Assembly (NCBI GenBank): GCA_026393675.1 | Contig: JAPKZQ010000002.1 | Span: 1-62,283 of the forward strand | Reading direction: 5' to 3' | Length of the DNA: 62,283 nt | From: Acidobacteriota bacterium | GTDB taxonomy: Bacteria > Acidobacteriota > Vicinamibacteria > Vicinamibacterales > JAKQTR01 | In this document: in pieces, positions 1 to 9,100 of the stretch | Numbering within the stretch: the stretch's first letter is position 1 | Layout of the letters: each line of letters begins with the position of its first letter | Translations under genes and position numbers: made by a program | Notes under the pieces: generated by a model | Seen by the model: the letters and a program-made list of their open reading frames with translations, nothing else | Told to the model about the DNA's origin: nothing | The model's database searches: none

Positions 1-67
1 ATCCTCACGCGTGGGGCCGCTCGGCGGCTCCACGCGGTTCCGACCGCTGAGCCCACGGTTGTTAGCT
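1..67 (-). other. Possible attC site cut by the window edge
   Basis: Read on the minus strand this starts with AGCTAACAACCG (67 down to 56), close to the start of attC sites. A GC-rich hairpin follows at 8-36: arms CGCGTGG and CCACGCG, with an inner GCCGC/GCGGC stem. The other end would lie outside the window. The first core base pattern departs from RYYYAAC, so this is a weak call supported mainly by its place in the array. Confidence 0.3.
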
Positions 68-103
68 GTCGTCACCATGTCTTATCGTGGCCAAGTATGT
101 GGT

Positions 104-140
104 GCCTAAAAACAGCGACTTCTGCCACGGGCTGTTAGGC
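104..140 (-). other. Degenerate attC-like core pair
   Basis: GTTAGGC on the + strand at 134-140 is a perfect attC end (GTTRRRY). It pairs imperfectly with GCCTAAAAAC at 104-113. The usual inner arms with CAGCCG/CGGCTG are missing, so this is either a decayed site or one half of a larger one. Confidence 0.35.
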
Positions 141-259
141 GGCCATCGGCACTAGCCCAGAAGTCAGCGCCGTTGTCGTGCCGTCTGGCAAGAACGGCTT
201 CGACGTCGGGAATGTACTTCTTGCTCACCACCCTGAACTCCCGTCCATGACTCTGGCGC

Positions 260-333
260 CATCAACGCTTGCGCTTCAGCCGCGGCGCTTCACGATCGCA
301 CCGACCGCCGACGGCTGCAAGCGCTTGTTGGCC
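260..333 (-). other. attC recombination site of the 37-residue peptide cassette
   Basis: On the minus strand the site opens with GGCCAAC (333-327), and the inner left arm is GCGCTTGCAGCCG. The right arm is CGGCTGAAGCGC followed by GTTGATG (266-260). The left arm has one extra G relative to the right arm. That is the extrahelical base that gives attC sites their polarity, here matching cassettes read on the minus strand. Both ends deviate slightly from the consensus. The site is 74 bp long and lies 83 bp after the stop codon of the small gene. Confidence 0.7.
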
Positions 334-416
334 TCTCGGTGTTTCTGTGGTTCCGTGAACAGGCATTGGACTTCGTCGGGAATTGGGGTCTTCGCGCGCT
401 CGAATCCTGATTCCTC

Positions 417-530
417 TCACGGAGTGCTCTTCTGTTGCTTATCCTGCTTCTTCTGGGCCTTTTGCTCTTGTTTGGTTACCTTCTGTTTCTGACCCTTGTT
501 CCTATCCTTTTTCCCACCTTTGTCTCCCAT
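417..530 (-). CDS. Lys/Gln-rich 37-residue cassette peptide
   Basis: The function is unknown. The peptide begins MGDKGGKKDRNKG and contains 12 Lys and 8 Gln in 37 residues, with no hydrophobic segment, so it is probably soluble and disordered or helical, perhaps nucleic-acid binding. The start at 530 is chosen because AGGAG lies 8 bases upstream. A longer reading from 602 would run into the neighbouring attC site. Short basic peptides of this kind recur in integron cassettes and environmental genomes; this is general recollection, not a search result. The gene sits between attC sites 625-694 and 260-333, so it is the only coding content of its cassette. Confidence 0.7.
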   Translation of the reverse strand: MGDKGGKKDRNKGQKQKVTKQEQKAQKKQDKQQKSTP

Positions 531-624
531 TGTGTGACTCCTTTTCCGTTTGCGTTTATCGTTTCGCTGTGAGGAGTGTAGCCGCACGGCAGATTCTGGC
601 ACTGACTGTCTTCATGGTGCTGAA

Positions 625-694
625 GGCCAACGCCTGCAACTGAGCCGCGCGCGGCCACGACCCCGCGCGCGCCGGCTCCATTCGTCTGTTAGGC
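625..694 (-). other. attC recombination site of the pentapeptide-repeat cassette
   Basis: On the minus strand it opens with GCCTAAC (694-688) and closes with GTTGGCC (631-625). The inner arms GGAGCCGGC and GCGGCTC pair around a GC-rich loop. The 70-bp site starts 8 bases after the stop codon of the pentapeptide-repeat gene, the usual place of an attC in a cassette. Confidence 0.75.
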
Positions 695-702
695 CAATCC
701 CA

Positions 703-1995
703 TTAATCAAACGGCCGCCCAAAGTAGGTCGAAACCCACAGAGCGATCAGACACATGCTGATCAGCGACTGCCATCCCGCCACCGCCCTCGCCCATCCCA
801 CAGCCTTGATATCGAATTCTTGTCTCGCCAGCAGCCGTAGCCAGCGCCCAAAGTCGAACCCCCGAAACCCAATGTTGAAAGCGCTCATAAGGCTGAAAAA
901 CATTGACGTGCGCAATAACAACCATTCGTGCCAGAAAAATCGAAGAAACCGTTGCGCGCCCCCCGTTTGCTCGTTGCCAAGAGATAAAATTCTCACCGCG
1001 CGTTGTCGCGCCGAGGGGTTTTCGTCGATGCTTGGTCCGTAAACGCGATAAAGTCCTGTCTCGCCGGAGGTATGGATGCAGGCGAAATACAGCAAGGAGC
1101 ATATGAGCCAAAGCAAAACTCCGAGGCTCAGCGGTCGTCCCGGATTCAGTCCATACTGGCAGGTCCAATCAAAAAACACCGTGCTGAGGATAAAAGAGCC
1201 ACAGTTCGCCAGATTACTGTCTGACCACCACAGTATCGCGCGCGGAGGACCATTCGGGCCGACAGGCTGTCCGAGCCCATTTAATTGGGGAAGTCTCCTC
1301 GAAGTGCACCCCGCCCGAGAGAGTTCCGCCTCTCTTCGTTTCAATGCGTATGAAATCTTCCTTTGCTGTTCCCGGAAGCCTCCGTTTGCAAGTTGCTGGC
1401 GGAGCTGAACGAGAGCACTTGGATTGACTTCGTAGGTTAGGTGTTCCAGACCATTTGCTGTCGCAAATCCCAGCAACTCCGGAAGGGACTTGGGCTCAAA
1501 ATTAGCTCCATCCAGCTTTGCTCCACCAAGAAAGGCGCCGCTTAGCTCTGCATCGCGAAGGTTCGCGCGCCTCAGGTCAGCATAGACGAGATTGGCGTTT
1601 CGTAACGAAGCACCCTCCAAGCCTGCTCCGTCTAGATGCGCCGTGGCAAGGTTCGTGCCGTCTAGATGTGCGCCATTTATGAACGCACTGGTCAGGTTCG
1701 CCCCCATCAGATTCGCCCCGCTCAGATTCGCGCCTTGCCAGATCATGCTCTCTAGGTCTGCCCAGAGCAGCTTTGCACCCACTAGCTCCTCACTTAGGTA
1801 CGGTTCACTGTATCGACGAGCTTTCTTAAGAATCTCGTCCAGTTCGGCTCGAGTATGGGTTTTGCCGGCCTTGTCCTCCCAGGTCCACTCTTTATTCTGC
1901 TGCGCCTTGGTCGGAGGGACCACCAATAGAAGCAGGAGAATGCCAAAGCCCAGCACTCGACCTATCGCGGCGCTACTCATTCCGTGGCAAGCCAT
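703..1995 (-). CDS. Pentapeptide-repeat membrane protein in an integron cassette
   Basis: A 430-residue protein. Residues 13-31 form a signal peptide or anchor ending near TKAQ. About twenty pentapeptide repeats of the A(D/N)LxX type fill residues 72-166 and should fold as a right-handed quadrilateral beta-helix. The C-terminal half has membrane segments around residues 297-315 and 408-425 with an amphipathic stretch between. This suggests a membrane protein with a helical rod outside the membrane; the substrate or partner is not evident. The start is set by GGAG about seven bases upstream. The gene fills the stretch between attC sites 2022-2119 and 625-694, so it is a single-gene cassette, long for its kind. 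Fusion of pentapeptide repeats to membrane segments also occurs in ion-channel-like proteins, but no channel motif is visible. Confidence 0.85.
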   Translation of the reverse strand: MACHGMSSAAIGRVLGFGILLLLLVVPPTKAQQNKEWTWEDKAGKTHTRAELDEILKKARRYSEPYLSEELVGAKLLWADLESMIWQGANLSGANLMGANLTSAFINGAHLDGTNLATAHLDGAGLEGASLRNANLVYADLRRANLRDAELSGAFLGGAKLDGANFEPKSLPELLGFATANGLEHLTYEVNPSALVQLRQQLANGGFREQQRKISYALKRREAELSRAGCTSRRLPQLNGLGQPVGPNGPPRAILWWSDSNLANCGSFILSTVFFDWTCQYGLNPGRPLSLGVLLWLICSLLYFACIHTSGETGLYRVYGPSIDENPSARQRAVRILSLGNEQTGGAQRFLRFFWHEWLLLRTSMFFSLMSAFNIGFRGFDFGRWLRLLARQEFDIKAVGWARAVAGWQSLISMCLIALWVSTYFGRPFD

Positions 1996-2021
1996 TTGTG
2001 TCTCCGGTTGTCACCCATGTG

Positions 2022-2119
2022 GCCTAACGATCGGCGCTCAGCCGCGAGCCGCACGTGATCGCTGCTTCGGTTTGGCTTTCTGTCGAACGCGACTCGTCGG
2101 CTGCAGCGCCTTGTTAGGC
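2022..2119 (-). other. Near-canonical attC recombination site
   Basis: The best attC of the array, 98 bp. On the minus strand it opens with GCCTAAC (2119-2113), then the arm GGCGCTGCAGCCG. The matching arm CGGCTGAGCGCC and the end GTTAGGC (2028-2022) close it. The first arm has one additional C/G base, the polarity-setting bulge. It orients the cassettes along the minus strand, away from the integrase remnant at 3734. The 3' end of the antitoxin gene reads into it. Confidence 0.9.
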
Positions 2120-2340
2120 CGACTGCCGATGACGGCCTTCGTCTTCGAAAGTCGCACCAATAAACGCAGCGCCTGATTTACGGACGCCGAATCCGGGAAG
2201 ACCGCCGCAATATCTGGCGCAAGAAACACGACATTGGTGCCGGCTTGATAGGCCTTGTAGTGCTTCCCGCGCACGCCGTGCGAGAAATCGTACTCGGGCC
2301 GCATCTCGTCGCTATCCTTTGGCTGGATTTGTGGACTCAT
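2038..2340 (-). CDS. Antitoxin partner of the BrnT-type toxin
   Basis: A 100-residue protein. The body (residues 13-60) has the MRPEYDFSHGVRGKHY stretch typical of small proteins encoded after BrnT-like toxins. The part around NVVFLAPDIAAVFPDSASVN resembles a ribbon-helix-helix DNA-binding fold, so it should bind the toxin and repress the operon. The ATG at 2340 overlaps the toxin gene by 29 bases, suggesting coupled translation. The last 30 or so residues (from NKALQPTSR onward) are read from the attC site and are probably not functional. An upstream extension to 2448 would lie wholly within the toxin gene and is not adopted. Family assignment beyond BrnT-associated antitoxin is uncertain. 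Confidence 0.75.
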   Translation of the reverse strand: MSPQIQPKDSDEMRPEYDFSHGVRGKHYKAYQAGTNVVFLAPDIAAVFPDSASVNQALRLLVRLSKTKAVIGSRPNKALQPTSRVRQKAKPKQRSRAARG

Positions 2341-2599
2341 AATGCTTGCGCTCTTCGGAGTTCGCTTCACGTGCGTTGATGATCCGAGTTCGACCGGCTC
2401 GTTCAGTGTACGCGACCACGATGAGTCGCCGGGCCGTCGAGCTACCAATACTCAGAAACCGTTCCTCGCCGACCGAGTGGTCCGGATCCGGGATGGTCAC
2501 CTCGAGCGGGTCGCTAAACACGGTCATGGCTTCGGCGAAATCGACCCCGTGTTTCTTGGCGTTTGCAGCGGCCTTGATGGGATCCCACTCGAATTCCAC
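2312..2599 (-). CDS. brnT: BrnT family ribonuclease toxin
   Basis: A 95-residue protein with the family pattern MEFEWDPIKAAANAKKHGVDF at the N-terminus (W5, D6, K9, N13, K16, H17), then ERFLSIG and the C-terminal RIINAREANSEER block. BrnT toxins cut RNA and halt translation until bound by their antitoxin; that is family knowledge. Start GTG at 2599 with GGAG ten bases upstream; no in-frame ATG lies nearby. The toxin precedes and overlaps its antitoxin, as in other BrnTA pairs. The pair occupies its own cassette between attC-like sites 2638-2708 and 2022-2119. Toxin-antitoxin cassettes are common in sedentary integrons and are thought to stabilise the array. Confidence 0.85.
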   Translation of the reverse strand: MEFEWDPIKAAANAKKHGVDFAEAMTVFSDPLEVTIPDPDHSVGEERFLSIGSSTARRLIVVAYTERAGRTRIINAREANSEERKHYESTNPAKG

Positions 2600-2637
2600 G
2601 ATTGATTTTACTCCGCATCGAGTTCAGTTGGGGTTCG

Positions 2638-2708
2638 GCCTAGACGTCCCGCGCTCACCCGCAGGCGCTCACCATCGCGCCCGCGCCGGCTGCAAGCGGT
2701 TGTTGGGC
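2638..2708 (-). other. attC recombination site with a damaged end
   Basis: On the minus strand it opens with GCCCAAC (2708-2702) and the arm CGCTTGCAGCCGGC. The opposing arm is GGGTGAGCG, and the final core reads GTCTAGGC instead of GTTAGGC, an inserted or altered base that would impair recombination. It lies 130 bp after the signal-peptide gene, with 32 bp to the start of the toxin gene. Confidence 0.65.
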
Positions 2709-2837
2709 TGCCCGTTTGTCGGCGTGGTCCGCAGGGCCCTCACCCGTGCTGCTCGTTCTCGCTGCGGAAGCTGTCGCCGACATCGAGACACCAAGGATAA
2801 AGTCACTGGAGACGTTGATCTTCCAGCCGCCATCAAA

Positions 2838-3452
2838 TCAGGGCGTCTTGCGAACAACGCTTGCGGCTTCGTAGAGTGGCTGGCCAATCGGGACGAGGGC
2901 TCCTCCGATCGCGCCGCCGGGAAGTCCAATGAAGATGGCGCCAAGTCCCGCAGCCTCGACTGTGCTCGAGGGGCGAGAGGATTGTTTGTCGATGACCACG
3001 GTGACGAGGGCGCCGCCCGCCATGCCGATGAGCATCCCATAGATGACGTGACGCTTGCGGACGCCGGCGTATCGGACACGAACGACGTCGGCAGCCTCGA
3101 TGGCCCGTGGCCCTCCGGGTTGATCGACGCGGATGGAATGCGTATCTATGGCGAGCAGCTTGCCTTCCACATGTGTCGCGTTCACGAGCGTGACGATGAC
3201 CTTCTCGCCGGCCTTGACCTTGCCGACCAGCGTGTCCCAAGAACGGTTGGGTTCTGCACCGGAGGCGGCGACGGGCTGACTTGTGAGGCGGCCCGGCCGG
3301 GCGGCGTTGTGCGTGACCGCAGAGGCCGCGTGCCTGATGGCCTCTTGACTGAAACGCGGTTGGGAAACCGCCAGCATTCCCTCCTGCGCAACCACGCCCA
3401 CGGTTGACGCCGCCAAGGTTGCGACGAACACGACAAATAGAGTTCGTTTCAT
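2838..3452 (-). CDS. Exported hypothetical protein with glycine-rich C-terminal segments
   Basis: A 204-residue protein of unknown function. Residues 1-22 (MKRTLFVVFVATLAASTVGV...AQ) are a clear Sec signal peptide. Residues 70-120 look like a small beta-rich domain (VGKVKAGEKVIVTLVNATHVEGKL resembles an Sm-like or SH3-like sheet). Two glycine-rich hydrophobic stretches near residues 140-155 and 170-190 (GMLIGMAGGALV, GAIFIGLPGGAIGGAL) resemble glycine-zipper segments that insert in membranes. The start at 3452 has GGGAGGTC upstream. It is the cassette nearest the integrase remnant, between sites 3517-3602 and 2638-2708. Confidence 0.75.
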   Translation of the reverse strand: MKRTLFVVFVATLAASTVGVVAQEGMLAVSQPRFSQEAIRHAASAVTHNAARPGRLTSQPVAASGAEPNRSWDTLVGKVKAGEKVIVTLVNATHVEGKLLAIDTHSIRVDQPGGPRAIEAADVVRVRYAGVRKRHVIYGMLIGMAGGALVTVVIDKQSSRPSSTVEAAGLGAIFIGLPGGAIGGALVPIGQPLYEAASVVRKTP

Positions 3453-3516
3453 GCCGACCTCCCGTCAAGCCGAGGGGCTTCAGTGCTTCCTCGTCCTGGT
3501 TCGTTGCCTCCTGTCA

Positions 3517-3602
3517 GCCCAACGGATAGGGTTTTATCCGCGCGCGATGCCCGTCCGAGATCGAGGCCGTTGTGGTTGCGCGCGGATAAGACCCCGTTGA
3601 AC
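3517..3602 (-). other. attC-like or attI-proximal palindrome next to the integrase remnant
   Basis: Minus strand: GTTCAAC (3602-3596) and GTTGGGC (3523-3517) match RYYYAAC and GTTRRRY. They enclose 17-bp arms (GGGTTTTATCCGCGCGC on + and its near-complement GCGCGCGGATAAGACCC) around a 30-base loop. The arms lack the usual CAGCCG block, so a plain stem-loop or a fused attI/attC is possible. Its place between the first cassette and the integrase fragment favours a recombination site. Confidence 0.5.
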
Positions 3603-3733
3603 TGAGCCGCGTTGGGGGGCGTGCGGCTATGGGGATTGTAAGGCCGGCGACCTTAGACTGTGCAGGATTCTTCGGCCAAGCGCCGTGGGATCGGGGGTTG
3701 AGGGTACGCGATCGTGAGGGTGCGGCCGCTGGC

Positions 3734-3904
3734 GCCGAAGCGGTTCGCGACTACCTGACGCACCTGGCAGTACATCGGCGAGTCTCGGCCAGCACTCAGA
3801 ACCAGGCGATGTGCGCCATCCTGTTCCTGTGCCGCGAAGTGCTGGGGCTGAACCCGGAGGGGCTCTCGCTCACGCCGAGGGCCAAGCGCGGCCAGCGAGG
3901 AAAA
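3734..3904 (+). pseudogene. intI: Remnant of an integron integrase (IntI)
   Basis: About 57 codons read as an N-terminal core-binding segment of a tyrosine integrase, with the IntI-like block THLAVHRRVSASTQNQA followed by LFLCREVLGL. It corresponds roughly to residues 60-115 of a ~330-residue IntI. The first ~55 residues and the whole catalytic domain (Arg-His-Arg-Tyr) are missing. Similarity stops where a palindromic repeat begins at 3908. The + strand direction, opposite to the minus-strand cassettes and just beyond the first attC-like site, is the classic intI-attI-cassette arrangement. The surrounding reading frame is open from 3629 to 4099, but its ends do not look like integrase. Confidence 0.8.
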
Positions 3905-3907
3905 GAG

Positions 3908-3951
3908 GTCGGGCCTATTTTCGCGGTGTGGGCGGCGAAAATCGGTCCGAC
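3908..3951. repeat. Palindromic repeat, 17-bp arms
   Basis: The arms GTCGGGCCTATTTTCGC and GCGAAAATCGGTCCGAC pair with two mismatches, one a G:T wobble, around a 10-base loop. It overlaps the last codons of the M48 protease gene, which thereby ends in GSDRFSPPTPRK, and abuts the integrase remnant. It could act as a terminator for the protease gene. A dispersed REP-like element is likely, but no second copy is in the window. Confidence 0.65.
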
Positions 3952-5090
3952 CCCTTCTTCATCTGGCGGGCGGACCAGGCTCGGGCGAAGTCCAGCCGAT
4001 CACCCAGCGGTGGATGGGTGTAGAAGAACAGGCGGGCAAACGCGGGTGGATTCTCCTCGGCCAGGTTGCCGGCGCCCAGTCTCTTCATCGCGCTGGTGAA
4101 CGCGGCCGGGTTTCGCGTGATGTCGAGCGCGAATTGATCCGCCCGGCGCTCGTGCCACCTGGAAATGGCATTCACCAGTGGCAGGGCGAGCACCGACACG
4201 CCCATCGCCGTCAGCACGAGTACGGGCAGCCCAGCCACATCGGCAACGCCGCCGAGGCCGAGCCACTCGATCGACCGACGCAAGACCTCGTTGCCAGCCC
4301 AGAATCCTAAGCCTACGACCACGGCCTCCAACACGAGCGCCCGCCAGACATCGTGGGACACGTGATGCGACAACTCGTGGGCGAGGATGACCTCAATTTC
4401 GTCCTCGGAGTAATCGCCGACCAGCGTGTCCGACAGCAGAATCCTCCGCGTCTGGCCGAACCCGGTCAGCGCCGCATTTGCGCGTGACGTCTTCTGGCTG
4501 AGCCGCCATTCATAGATGCCGATGGTTCCCGTGCCGACGCGCTGGACCAGCGCGTTCAGCCGCTCGCTGAGCGAGTCGTTCTGCAGGGGGGTCACCTTGA
4601 AAAAGAGAGGGATGAGCACGACCGGCGCCAGCCACGTCAGGATGAGGCTCACGATCACGGCGCCCGCCGTGGTCGCCAGCCACCACCGATCAGGCCAGAG
4701 GGTCAGCGCGAGGTAGACGAACCCGGCCGAGAGGCCACCGAACAGGAGGCCGAGCCCGAGTGCCTTCAGATGGTCCCGGCCCCACTCACCCGCCGTCTGC
4801 CGCGACAGGCCATATCGCCGTTCGAGGATGAACCCCGTAAAAAAGGCGAGCGGAAACGCGACAGCTTCGTGGGCGAGCGCCACGGTCAGCGCGTAGACCA
4901 CGGCAATGGCGGGAACGACCAGGAATGCCGGGACGAAGGAAGATTCCAGAACGCCGTGAGCCGTATCGCGGAGCAGCGCAGACCAGCCCGTCGCCAGCAG
5001 CAGCGCCAGCAGCAGAACAGACCAACCCGCCGCCGCAATGGCCGCGCGGCGACGGAGCCGATGGAATCGTGTAGCCTTGTCCTCGTTCAT
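3915..5090 (-). CDS. M48 (Ste24/HtpX-like) membrane zinc metalloprotease
   Basis: A 391-residue integral membrane protease. The zinc site is H238-E239-x-x-H242 (in VILAHELSHH), with E314 in HERRADQFALD as third ligand, the M48 Ste24-type pattern. Membrane segments lie near residues 17-37, 52-75, 110-130, 138-165 and 255-305. Family members cleave near the membrane and take part in protein quality control or CAAX-like processing; the substrate here is unknown. The C-terminal tail comes from a palindromic repeat and is unlikely to be important. The gene follows the DUF4097 gene on the same strand after 113 bases. Confidence 0.88.
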   Translation of the reverse strand: MNEDKATRFHRLRRRAAIAAAGWSVLLLALLLATGWSALLRDTAHGVLESSFVPAFLVVPAIAVVYALTVALAHEAVAFPLAFFTGFILERRYGLSRQTAGEWGRDHLKALGLGLLFGGLSAGFVYLALTLWPDRWWLATTAGAVIVSLILTWLAPVVLIPLFFKVTPLQNDSLSERLNALVQRVGTGTIGIYEWRLSQKTSRANAALTGFGQTRRILLSDTLVGDYSEDEIEVILAHELSHHVSHDVWRALVLEAVVVGLGFWAGNEVLRRSIEWLGLGGVADVAGLPVLVLTAMGVSVLALPLVNAISRWHERRADQFALDITRNPAAFTSAMKRLGAGNLAEENPPAFARLFFYTHPPLGDRLDFARAWSARQMKKGSDRFSPPTPRK

Positions 5091-6191: not shown

Positions 6192-9100
6192 TCAGTTGAG
6201 CTTGACCGAAATCAGCTTCGAGACGCCCGGCTCCTCCATCGTGACCCCGTAGAGCCGGTCGGCAATCTCCATCGTTTTCCGGTTGTGGGTAATCAGGATG
6301 AACTGGGTGTCCGCCTGCATGGCCCGCAGCATATCGAGGAACCTGCCGGTATTGGCGTCGTCGAGCGGCGCATCGATCTCGTCGAGCACGCAGAACGGGC
6401 TTGGCTTGTACCTGAAGATGGCGAACATGAGCGAGATCGCCGTCAGCGCCTTCTCGCCGCCCGACAGCAACTGCACGTTCTGGAGGCGCTTGCCCGGCGG
6501 TTGCGCGATAATCTCGATGCCGCTCTCGAGGATGTCGTCTTCGTCGAGCAGCGTCAGGCCAGCCCGGCCCCCGCTGAACAACGACGCGAACATCTCCTGG
6601 AAGTGCAGGTTGATGGCGTCAAACGCCTCGCGGAACCGCTCCCGCGTCGTGTGGTCGATCTTTTTGATGGCCTCACCGGTCGACGCGATCGAATCGACCA
6701 GGTCCTTCCTCTGGGTCGTGAGGAAACCGTGCCGTGACTCGAGTTCGTCATACTGCTCGATCGCCATCATGTTGACCGGGCCCAGCTTGTCGATCTTGCG
6801 CTTGAGTTCCGTGATGGCGTCTTCGGGCGTCAGCGCACGCGGCGCCGGCTCGACCACTGGCGAGCCCTCCACGGCGGCGACCTCCGCGGCCTCCGCGCCT
6901 GCCGGCGGCAACTGGATCCCATCGGTGTCCTGCGCCGGTTCGTCTTCCGGTTCGTCCGCGTAGATCGCCCGCCAGTCGGGGCTGACCTCGCCGTCTCTCT
7001 CCAACTGCTCGACCTCTGCAATCACCGACTCGAGATCGGTCTGCAGCGTCTCGGCGCAGATCGACGCAAGATGCGCCAGGTCGCTCTCGGCCTTGGCGCG
7101 GCCGACCTCGGCCTCAGACAACGACGACCGCACCGCGTCCAGCGTGCGTCTGGCCTCGCGAATGGCCGATTCCTGCTGCTCGCCCTGCTGCCGAACGAGC
7201 CCCACGGCTTCGTCCGCGCTCCGCACGGCCTCACGTCCGGCGTCCAGCGCGGCCAACTCGACGTCGAGGGATCGCGTGGCCTCAGAAAGCGCGTGACGCA
7301 GTCGATCCTGCTCACCGGCGATCTGCTGCTGCTCTTCGCGCCTGGCCACGAGTCGGGCTTCGATTTCCCGGCAGGCTTCCTCGAGGCGTGCGGCCTCGAG
7401 CGACACGGCCGCGGCCCGTTCGACCAGCCGTGCGTGTTCGGCCATCGCGTCTCTTACGCGCTCGCCTCGCAGCCGTGACTCGTCGCGCGCATCGAACAGA
7501 CGGCGTTGGGCCGCGCCGAGTTTCTCGTCGACCAGGCGCTGCTCGTCGGCCAGGCGTACCACTGACTGTCTGGCTTCCACCTGCCTCGCATCGAGACCCG
7601 CGATCTCCTCGTCTCCGCGGCGAATGTCGAGCGCCACGACCGATCGCTTCTGATCCACGCGCTGTGCCTGCTCGGACGCCTGTGCCACTCGCAGTCCAAA
7701 TTCGACGATCGCCTTTTCGTGGACGTGGACCTCGGCCGACATCGCTTCAATCGCCGCCGCCGCCGCGGTCGCACGGCGGTCGACATCGGCGAGCGTCGTG
7801 TCGAGCCTGGCGACCTGGGTGCGCTCGACCTCAAGACGTTCGCGCGTCTGCCGGATGTCGCTCTTGGTCTGGAGGATGCCCCCCTGATCGTGTTGTCCCG
7901 CCCCGCCCCACACGAGGTTCGCGCCGCGGCAGACCTCGCCGTCTCTGGTCGCCACGGGCGCGGCCGTCTGACGCGCTGCAGCGACGGCATCGGCAAACGT
8001 CCCTGCGATCCAGCCGTTGGTGACAAACGGGCGCAGGGCCCCGGCGCAGGCGCCCGACACCGAGACGACCGCGTCGAGCGGCGTGAGGCCCGGCAACGCC
8101 TCGGCGGACCTTCGCCCGCCATCAGTCGCCGGTGCCCCATCGACGACCACGAATCCGCAGCGTCCGGCGCCCCTGGTGCTGACCAGATGCAGGGCCCGTT
8201 CGGCTTCCTCGTGGGTGGGTACGACCACGAATTGAAGCGTGTCGCCCAGGCACGCTTCCACCGCGCGCTCGAAGCCAGGCTTGACGTCGAGATAGTCGGC
8301 AACCGAGCCGAGATGCCGGACTTCGCCGGCCGACTCGGCCAGCACGAGTCGCGCCGCATCACCGTACGCGGTACGGGCGGATTCAAAACGTTCGAGGGAG
8401 TCCAGCCGAGCGGCCAGACCAGCCAGTTCCTGCTCCGCCTCGCGGAGCATCTGGCCTGCACGTTCCCGTTCGGCTCGCAGGCCGGTCAGTTCGACTTCAC
8501 GGGCGCTGCGCGCACGCATCACCTCATCGAGCCTGGCGCTGGCGCTGGCGAGCGACGTCGCGGCTCCGTCGTGATCGGCCTTCGCGCGCGCGGCCTCGAC
8601 GTCCAGGTCGGAGGCTTCGGCGGTCCAGCGGGCGATATCACGCGACACGCGCTCACGGGCGCTGCTGGCGTTGTCGATGGCATGCTGCAGCGCGGACGCC
8701 GCACTGGCGGCGGCGAACTGCTCGCTGCGTGCCGCTTCGACATCGGCTTCGAGTCCTTCGAGCACGCCCTGCACAGCGACCTGGGCCTCGTTGGCCGCAG
8801 AGAGCGTGGCCGCTGCGGCCTCGCGGTCCTGCGCGGCGCGCTCAACTTCCTGCTGTTTGAGCGCCGCTCCTTGGGCGGCCGGTCCCCGCCGCAGGCCGAG
8901 TGTCTCGACTTCCCCCGCGATGTCGGTCGCCCGCCGGCCGAGCGCGGTGACCTGCTCCTCGTCATTCTGAATGCGCTGCTCGAGACGCCCGATCTCGACT
9001 TCGTGGGCATGCGCGGCCTCGCGCGCCGTACGGGCCGCGCTCTCCAACTGGACCAGTTCGAGGCGAAGCCGCTCGAGATCGGATTCCAGCTGCGCCAGGT

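What the first reader, a model, noticed from the sequence alone, without database searches (positions are those of the whole stretch)
1..3951. Fossil integron: intI fragment plus divergent attC cassettes in a housekeeping region
Seen: an IntI-like block on + (3734-3904); at least four attC-like sites on the minus strand with RYYYAAC/GTTRRRY ends, CAGCCG/CGGCTG inner arms and a single bulged base; and one small gene or operon between successive sites. The site bulges and the gene directions agree, and all cassettes point away from the integrase remnant. Established: this is the intI-attI-cassette plan of integrons. Inference: the integrase has lost its catalytic part, so the array is immobile unless an integrase acts in trans. 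A chromosomal integron in what looks like an acidobacterium is little described.
Basis: partly seen in the sequence, partly recalled or inferred. Interest (0 to 1): 0.8.

Follow-up and report, generated by a model that had tools for sequence, protein, structure and literature searches.

The report
Relic integron with chromosomal gene cassettes
Next to ordinary housekeeping genes, this probable acidobacterium carries the remains of a bacterial gene-capture system (an integron): a scrap of its integrase gene and a row of captured genes with their recombination sites, while a complete integrase gene elsewhere in the same genome might still move them.

Summary
A covariance model built from 20 attC sites outside the window finds four sites in the first 2.7 kb, all on the minus strand (66, 56, 49 and 35 bits; E 2.6e-14 to 1.2e-6); the next place in 62 kb scores 11 bits. 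The + strand block at 3725-3901 is an IntI fragment by profile and tree; only model positions 40-95 of 315 remain, so catalytic domain and N-terminus are gone. Cassette genes include a BrnT toxin pair. The window is a whole contig that ends inside the array. In the sister genome, and in four of six other relatives examined, the same locus is empty, so this looks like an insertion. The genome holds at least 36 attC places, one complete IntI and one 5'-truncated IntI. The relic belongs to another IntI lineage, whose complete members carry an extra N-terminal segment that weakly matches a second SAM-like domain. Best reading: a decayed chromosomal integron, now an integrase-less attC cluster (CALIN) with an integrase scrap, perhaps still serviced in trans. 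Integrons, CALINs and dead integrases are known, also from Acidobacteriota, so it is a new member of a known kind; the tandem-domain IntI lineage is the most unusual part.

The parts
1..67 (-). possible start of a further attC-like site (AGCTAAC box at 61-67 and an inverted repeat) cut off by the contig end
   Evidence: read from the sequence; no model hit there; unproven
260..333 (-). attC site, most distal scored one
   Evidence: R1 66.1 bits, E 2.6e-14; DNA fold z -2.69 on both strands
420..530 (-). cassette gene, 37-aa Lys/Gln-rich small protein
   Evidence: matches at E<=0.001 in 16 of 162 genomes of the order, own included
625..694 (-). attC site
   Evidence: R1 49.0 bits, E 4.7e-10; relaxed finder; folds weakly
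703..1995 (-). cassette gene, 430-aa protein with pentapeptide repeats
   Evidence: PF00805 E 2.1e-20
2022..2119 (-). attC site, exact GCCTAAC/GTTAGGC boxes, one-base bulge in the left arm
   Evidence: R1 55.9 bits; strict finder; fold z -4.17/-4.36
2038..2340 (-). cassette ORF, putative antitoxin partner of BrnT; its stop codon lies inside the attC (C-terminus ...PNKALQPTS...)
   Evidence: ORF; no Pfam match; the pairing is inferred from adjacency
2312..2599 (-). cassette gene, BrnT-family ribonuclease toxin
   Evidence: PF04365 E 8.6e-26
2638..2708 (-). attC site, eroded (core box damaged, stem poor)
   Evidence: R1 35.3 bits, E 1.2e-6; fold no better than shuffles
2838..3452 (-). cassette gene, 204-aa protein of unknown family, signal-like N-terminus by eye
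   Evidence: no Pfam match over its cut-off; matches at E<=1e-5 in 4 of the 161 other genomes of the order
3517..3602 (-). attC-like palindrome with both consensus boxes (GTTCAAC/GTTGGGC) at the proximal end; nature open
   Evidence: R1 11.2 bits, E 1.3; fold z -3.74/-5.81
3725..3901 (+). intI relic: internal piece of the SAM-like domain, model positions 40-95 of 315
   Evidence: 79% identical over 52 aa to an IntI of G008
3898..3960 (.). palindromic repeat (REP/MITE-like) at the junction with M48
   Evidence: 81-83% similar copies at C30:32104-32166 (both strands) and C5:167-224
3964..5090 (-). chromosomal flank: M48 peptidase gene (ORF 3915-5090; its last codons are insert sequence)
   Evidence: PF01435 E 1.4e-23; homology to G001 stops at 3964

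Best explanation
The segment is a decayed sedentary chromosomal integron. An integron of the 'long-IntI' lineage entered the locus between the M48 protease gene and the cupredoxin-pnp genes in this species' line, gathered cassettes in the classical divergent layout, and then lost nearly all of intI: both ends of the gene are gone, perhaps by deletion involving the junction repeat. What remains is a cluster of attC sites lacking an integrase (CALIN) plus an integrase scrap. The better-kept sites resemble the other attC sites of the genome enough that the complete IntI on contig C16 might excise or reinsert these cassettes by recombining the folded bottom strand of attC. Shown: sites, polarity, IntI fragment, empty locus in relatives, complete IntI, other attC clusters. 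Inferred: order of events, cause of the integrase loss, trans mobilisation.
For: attC by a model without window sequence; 0 R1 hits at E<=0.01 in 21 other loci, 62.8 kb. IntI profiles, IntI4 the only PDB match, tree clade of 7 rows with 100% SH-aLRT. 8 of 11 long-IntI loci have an attC at E<=0.01, all 8 on the opposite strand on the 5' side, as in the window (strands; see the caveat against). Locus: in G001, G002, G003, G012 and G037 (5 of 7 relatives examined) M48 and cupredoxin are direct neighbours with pnp beyond, without attC. In this genome cupredoxin and pnp open contig C12, whose first 1.3 kb does not match that G001 stretch and holds an ORF in the array's direction and a group II intron. 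Complete IntI on C16 with an upstream region conserved with G001 up to GTT, then divergent. 36 attC places in the genome.
Against: No contig joins C2 to C12, so a single insertion is inferred. No attI was recognised. Two of four sites fold poorly. R1 finds no attC in C12:1-8000. The relic is about 56 residues, and of its six clade partners only L026, L029 and L038 hold that stretch fully. The layout count is biased: stretches other than L038 and L026 reach only about 0.5 kb past the 3' end of intI, so attC there would be missed (L176 is weak, E 0.0086). Of the 7 relatives examined, G005 has M48 and cupredoxin about 5 kb apart without attC, and G020 has an attC (41.8 bits) by M48 and no cupredoxin or pnp in the stretch held, so repeated insertion at this place is not excluded.
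Confidence: 0.83

Rival explanations
1. The array is a CALIN made by off-target insertion of cassettes at a genomic site by an integrase in trans, and the intI scrap arrived separately.
For: attC places are scattered in this family: 27 in G001, 2 in G002, 6 in G003 and 2 in G004 at E<=0.001, while G002-G004 show no IntI at E<=1e-60. G020 has an attC beside M48.
Against: The scrap lies at the proximal end of the array, on the strand and side found in its own lineage.
Confidence: 0.1
2. The array belonged to the C16 integron and came here by recombination between arrays; the scrap is debris of an older element.
For: C16 ends 0.7 kb past intI, just beyond the presumed attI; C2 ends within its array; R1 finds sites of one general type across the genome.
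Against: Both C2 and C12 flanks match one G001 locus and C16 matches another (G001 C36); relic and C16 IntI are of different lineages.
Confidence: 0.05
3. The block is a Xer/phage integrase remnant and the palindromes are chance or terminators.
For: A phage-collection record (KX853513.1, gene named xerD by its depositors) matches the block at 53.8%, E 1e-7; SAM-like domains occur in many tyrosine recombinases (general knowledge).
Against: Profiles and tree favour IntI; attC scores with strand polarity.
Confidence: 0.02

Closest known systems
CALIN (cluster of attC sites lacking an integron-integrase)
   Same: two or more attC sites in one orientation with cassette genes and no complete intI beside them
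   Different: an intI scrap is still attached at the expected end, and the contig ends inside the array
Sedentary chromosomal integrons of Xanthomonas with inactivated intI
   Same: chromosomal arrays kept after intI was truncated or deleted; CALINs at further places (passages, PMC12444791)
   Different: other phylum; there one ancestral locus at ilvD, here one complete and two broken IntI at three loci of one genome
Integron integrase family (TIGR02249; IntI4 structure 2a3v)
   Same: the fragment aligns to residues 46-95 of IntI4
   Different: catalytic domain absent; the nearest relatives have an extra N-terminal segment of about 100 residues

Membership tests
complete integron | intact intI gene in cis | tested here: not met
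   only model positions 40-95 of 315 at C2:3725-3901
complete integron | attI site next to intI | tested here: inconclusive
   nothing recognised; 3517-3602 unclear
complete integron | array of attC sites with boxes, paired arms and strand polarity | tested here: met
   four minus-strand sites by R1; two of the four fold clearly better than shuffles
complete integron | site-specific recombination of cassettes | not testable with these tools
   needs a recombination assay
CALIN | two or more attC sites without a recognisable complete integrase nearby | tested here: met
   threshold of two from a passage of PMC9024848; IntegronFinder itself not run
IntI for the 3725-3901 block | profile match better than to other tyrosine recombinases | tested here: met
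   TIGR02249 E 2.3e-9 and PRK15417 are the only NCBIfam matches listed; 37 bits, far under the 265-bit cut-off because it is a fragment
IntI for the 3725-3901 block | catalytic domain | tested here: not met
   match ends at model position 95; no PF00589 match

The most novel reading that the evidence does not exclude
This bacterial order hosts a separate lineage of integron integrases with a tandem pair of SAM-like N-terminal domains. Genomes such as this one run a dispersed integron: one complete integrase of another lineage maintains many small attC arrays in trans, including arrays left by extinct integrases such as the one in the window.
Probability: 0.35. Interest if true: 0.52.

Novelty: new member of a known kind. 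Interest (0 to 1): 0.34.

Why it matters
It is an example, polarised by empty sites in relatives, of a chromosomal integron that decayed into an integrase-free cassette array. One genome holds a complete integrase, two broken ones and at least 36 attC places, which makes trans mobilisation of orphan arrays testable. The IntI lineage with an added N-terminal segment may be worth biochemical work.

Tried and rejected
A relaxed box search with one mismatch per box and length up to 170 was too noisy to use alone: best in the first 4.5 kb 15.0, 12.6 and 10.9 (the third on the + strand), but up to 13.8 elsewhere in the window and up to the 10-11 band in 10 shuffles. Tightened, it gave 2 sites in the array, 0 in the other 57.8 kb and 1 in 81.3 kb of 20 M48 loci, that one a chance hit in coding DNA by my reading. 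For attI, window 3400-3964 was compared with three long-IntI loci (L038, L029, L026): beyond the coding match only short matches at E>=0.2 appeared, one of them 13 bases over a GTTGGGC core. Cassette recurrence: in 21 loci of relatives with the 37-aa or 204-aa gene R1 finds no attC, so these genes are not shown to be cassettes elsewhere. PADLOC gave nothing for four window proteins and the C12 ORF. In the window Rfam gave nothing at gathering thresholds, ARAGORN no tRNA. One phrase search for integron integrases with an N-terminal extension gave one paper, whose passages do not describe this lineage; that is no proof of absence.

Caveats on R1: its 20 training sites were picked by my own finder near IntI genes (16 from unnamed relatives, 1 from contig C46 of this genome, 2 from a Gemmatirosa plasmid, 1 aadA attC), none from the window; its E-values are rough by the tool's own statement. 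Genome counts are lower bounds (150 of 5954 candidates scored; likewise).

Full report
What is there. The window is the whole of contig C2 of a 3.25-Mb draft genome (46 contigs, 98.57% complete). Its first 3.9 kb differ from the rest. From 3964 on, DNA is syntenic with G001 (same genus): M48 peptidase, a DUF4097 protein and a large SMC-like gene, 78-85% identical. Homology stops at 3964, at the last codons of M48. A named 'Acidobacteria gp6' MAG (L130) is among the nearest tree rows of the C16 and C46 IntI, which fits but does not prove it.

The integrase relic. The block 3725-3901 (+) matches TIGR02249 at positions 40-95 of 315 (E 2.3e-9 for the ORF) and PF13495. No Xer profile is among the NCBIfam matches listed at E<=1, and the only PDB match is IntI4. 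The N-terminal end and the whole catalytic domain are missing. A palindromic repeat with copies on two other contigs lies between it and M48. One phage-collection record, with a gene named xerD, matches the block at 53.8%.

The attC sites. Sites were collected near IntI genes; 20 of them, none from the window, were aligned and made into model R1. With filters off R1 gives four minus-strand sites in the window, at 66.1, 55.9, 49.0 and 35.3 bits; apart from their own reverse strands (15.9 bits at most) the next place in 62 kb has 11.2 bits. In 21 other loci of relatives R1 found nothing at E<=0.01. As folded DNA, 2022-2119 and 260-333 beat shuffles; 625-694 hardly does and 2638-2708 does not, which fits decay. 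The palindrome 3517-3602 folds very well (z -5.81 as +) but is no R1 site; I leave it open.

The cassettes. Between the sites lie a 37-aa protein (16 of 162 genomes, own included), a 430-aa pentapeptide-repeat protein, a BrnT toxin with a short ORF as likely antitoxin, and, between 2638-2708 and 3517-3602, a 204-aa protein of no known family. The antitoxin ORF ends inside the attC. The 21 loci of relatives with the 37-aa or 204-aa gene have no attC, so these are not recurrent cassettes on this evidence.

The locus. Seven relatives were examined. In G001, G002, G003, G012 and G037 M48 and the cupredoxin-like gene are neighbours with pnp beyond, and R1 finds no attC. In G005 about 5 kb separate M48 and cupredoxin, without attC. 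In G020 an attC of 41.8 bits lies about 110 bases past the matched end of M48, and no cupredoxin or pnp appears in the 19.9 kb held. In this genome cupredoxin and pnp open contig C12. C12:1-1306 does not match that G001 stretch; it holds a 265-aa ORF in the array's direction (squalene-hopene cyclase domain, E 3e-5, under the cut-off) and a short group II intron whose Rfam match ends at 1310, at the cupredoxin stop codon. R1 finds no attC there. One insertion bridging C2 and C12 is the simplest reading; the assembly does not show it.

The rest of the genome. C16 carries a full-length IntI (427.9 bits; Pfam domains; aligned to IntI4 along its length). Its upstream region is conserved with G001 up to GTT and then diverges, as at a cassette insertion point. 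C46 carries an IntI without the first 60 model positions. R1 places 36 sites at 27 bits or more: 4 in C2, 6 at the start of C46 and 2 more in it, 6 in C10, 8 in C37, 8 in C41 (both ends), 1 each in C44 and C45; two more at 37 bits or over appear. One of the 36 (C46:73153-73220) was in the training set. G001 has 27 at E<=0.001, G002, G003 and G004 have 2, 6 and 2. IntI at E<=1e-60 occurs in 58 of 162 genomes of the order, own included.

Lineages. In a quick tree of 61 IntI rows the relic falls in a clade of seven with 100% SH-aLRT, all from this order; C16 IntI groups with G001 (100%), and C46 IntI stands apart from both, weakly placed. The relic fills 17% of the columns, and three of its six partners lack most of that stretch; the best match is 79% over 52 aa. 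The three members whose N-terminus is held share an N-terminal segment of about 100 residues before the SAM-like domain. Scanned alone it matches PF13495 along nearly its whole length in L026 (8-86 on profile 2-82 of 85, E 3.4e-4) and weakly in L038 (E 0.032), both under the cut-off: a diverged second SAM-like domain is likely. The segment occurs in 17 of 162 genomes at E<=1e-8, not in this one, whose relic lacks that part. 8 of 11 loci of this lineage have an attC at E<=0.01, all on the opposite strand on the 5' side, as in the window; the three without (L026, L171, L175) begin near a contig start, and most stretches reach only 0.5 kb past the 3' end of intI. C46 and G019 have the other layout, attC on the same strand downstream of intI.

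What is known, from passages or abstract starts only. Integrons are listed for Acidobacteriota, and CALINs are thought to arise by off-target insertion, intI loss or rearrangement (PMC8618304). Acidobacteria has a published attC model (PMC8352920). CALINs are reported from two attC sites up and draft assemblies inflate them (PMC9024848). Xanthomonas integrons often have inactivated intI (PMC12444791). The bottom strand of attC recombines (PMC2727003). Group IIC introns are associated with integrons (start of abstract, PMC7923331). So this is a new member of a known kind. The least expected parts are the probable second SAM-like domain of one IntI lineage and one complete integrase beside two broken ones in one genome.

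Noticed in passing
L038:1489-2772 (-), L026:363-1652 (+), L029: IntI lineage with an extra N-terminal segment of about 100 residues that weakly matches a second SAM-like domain (PF13495, E 3.4e-4 in L026); segment found in 17 of 162 genomes of the order.
   Followed up: partly
G000 C37 (L136:2375-4249, +): Group II intron with a reverse transcriptase/maturase ORF inside a cassette array.
   Followed up: partly
G000 C12 (L080:937-1310, +): Short group II intron without room for an ORF, whose Rfam match ends at the stop codon of the cupredoxin gene.
   Followed up: no
G000 C46 (L010:9173-9910, - and 8154-8221, -): 5'-truncated IntI followed by a PfpI-like gene (named by eye) and an attC on the same strand: opposite layout to the window; the same layout is seen in G019 (L062).
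   Followed up: partly
G020:C36 (L146:13388-13460, -): Single attC about 110 bases past the matched end of the M48 gene in another family of the order.
   Followed up: partly
G000 C41 right end (L138) and C46 left end (L140): Both contigs end in nearly the same ORF, so a repeat shared by two arrays probably broke the assembly.
   Followed up: no
window 3898-3960: Palindromic repeat at the insert/M48 junction with 81-83% similar copies at C30 and C5.
   Followed up: partly
G000 C10 and C41 arrays (L135:16-294, L137:190-612): Cassette genes include two PIN-domain proteins, so toxin-like genes recur in these arrays.
   Followed up: no
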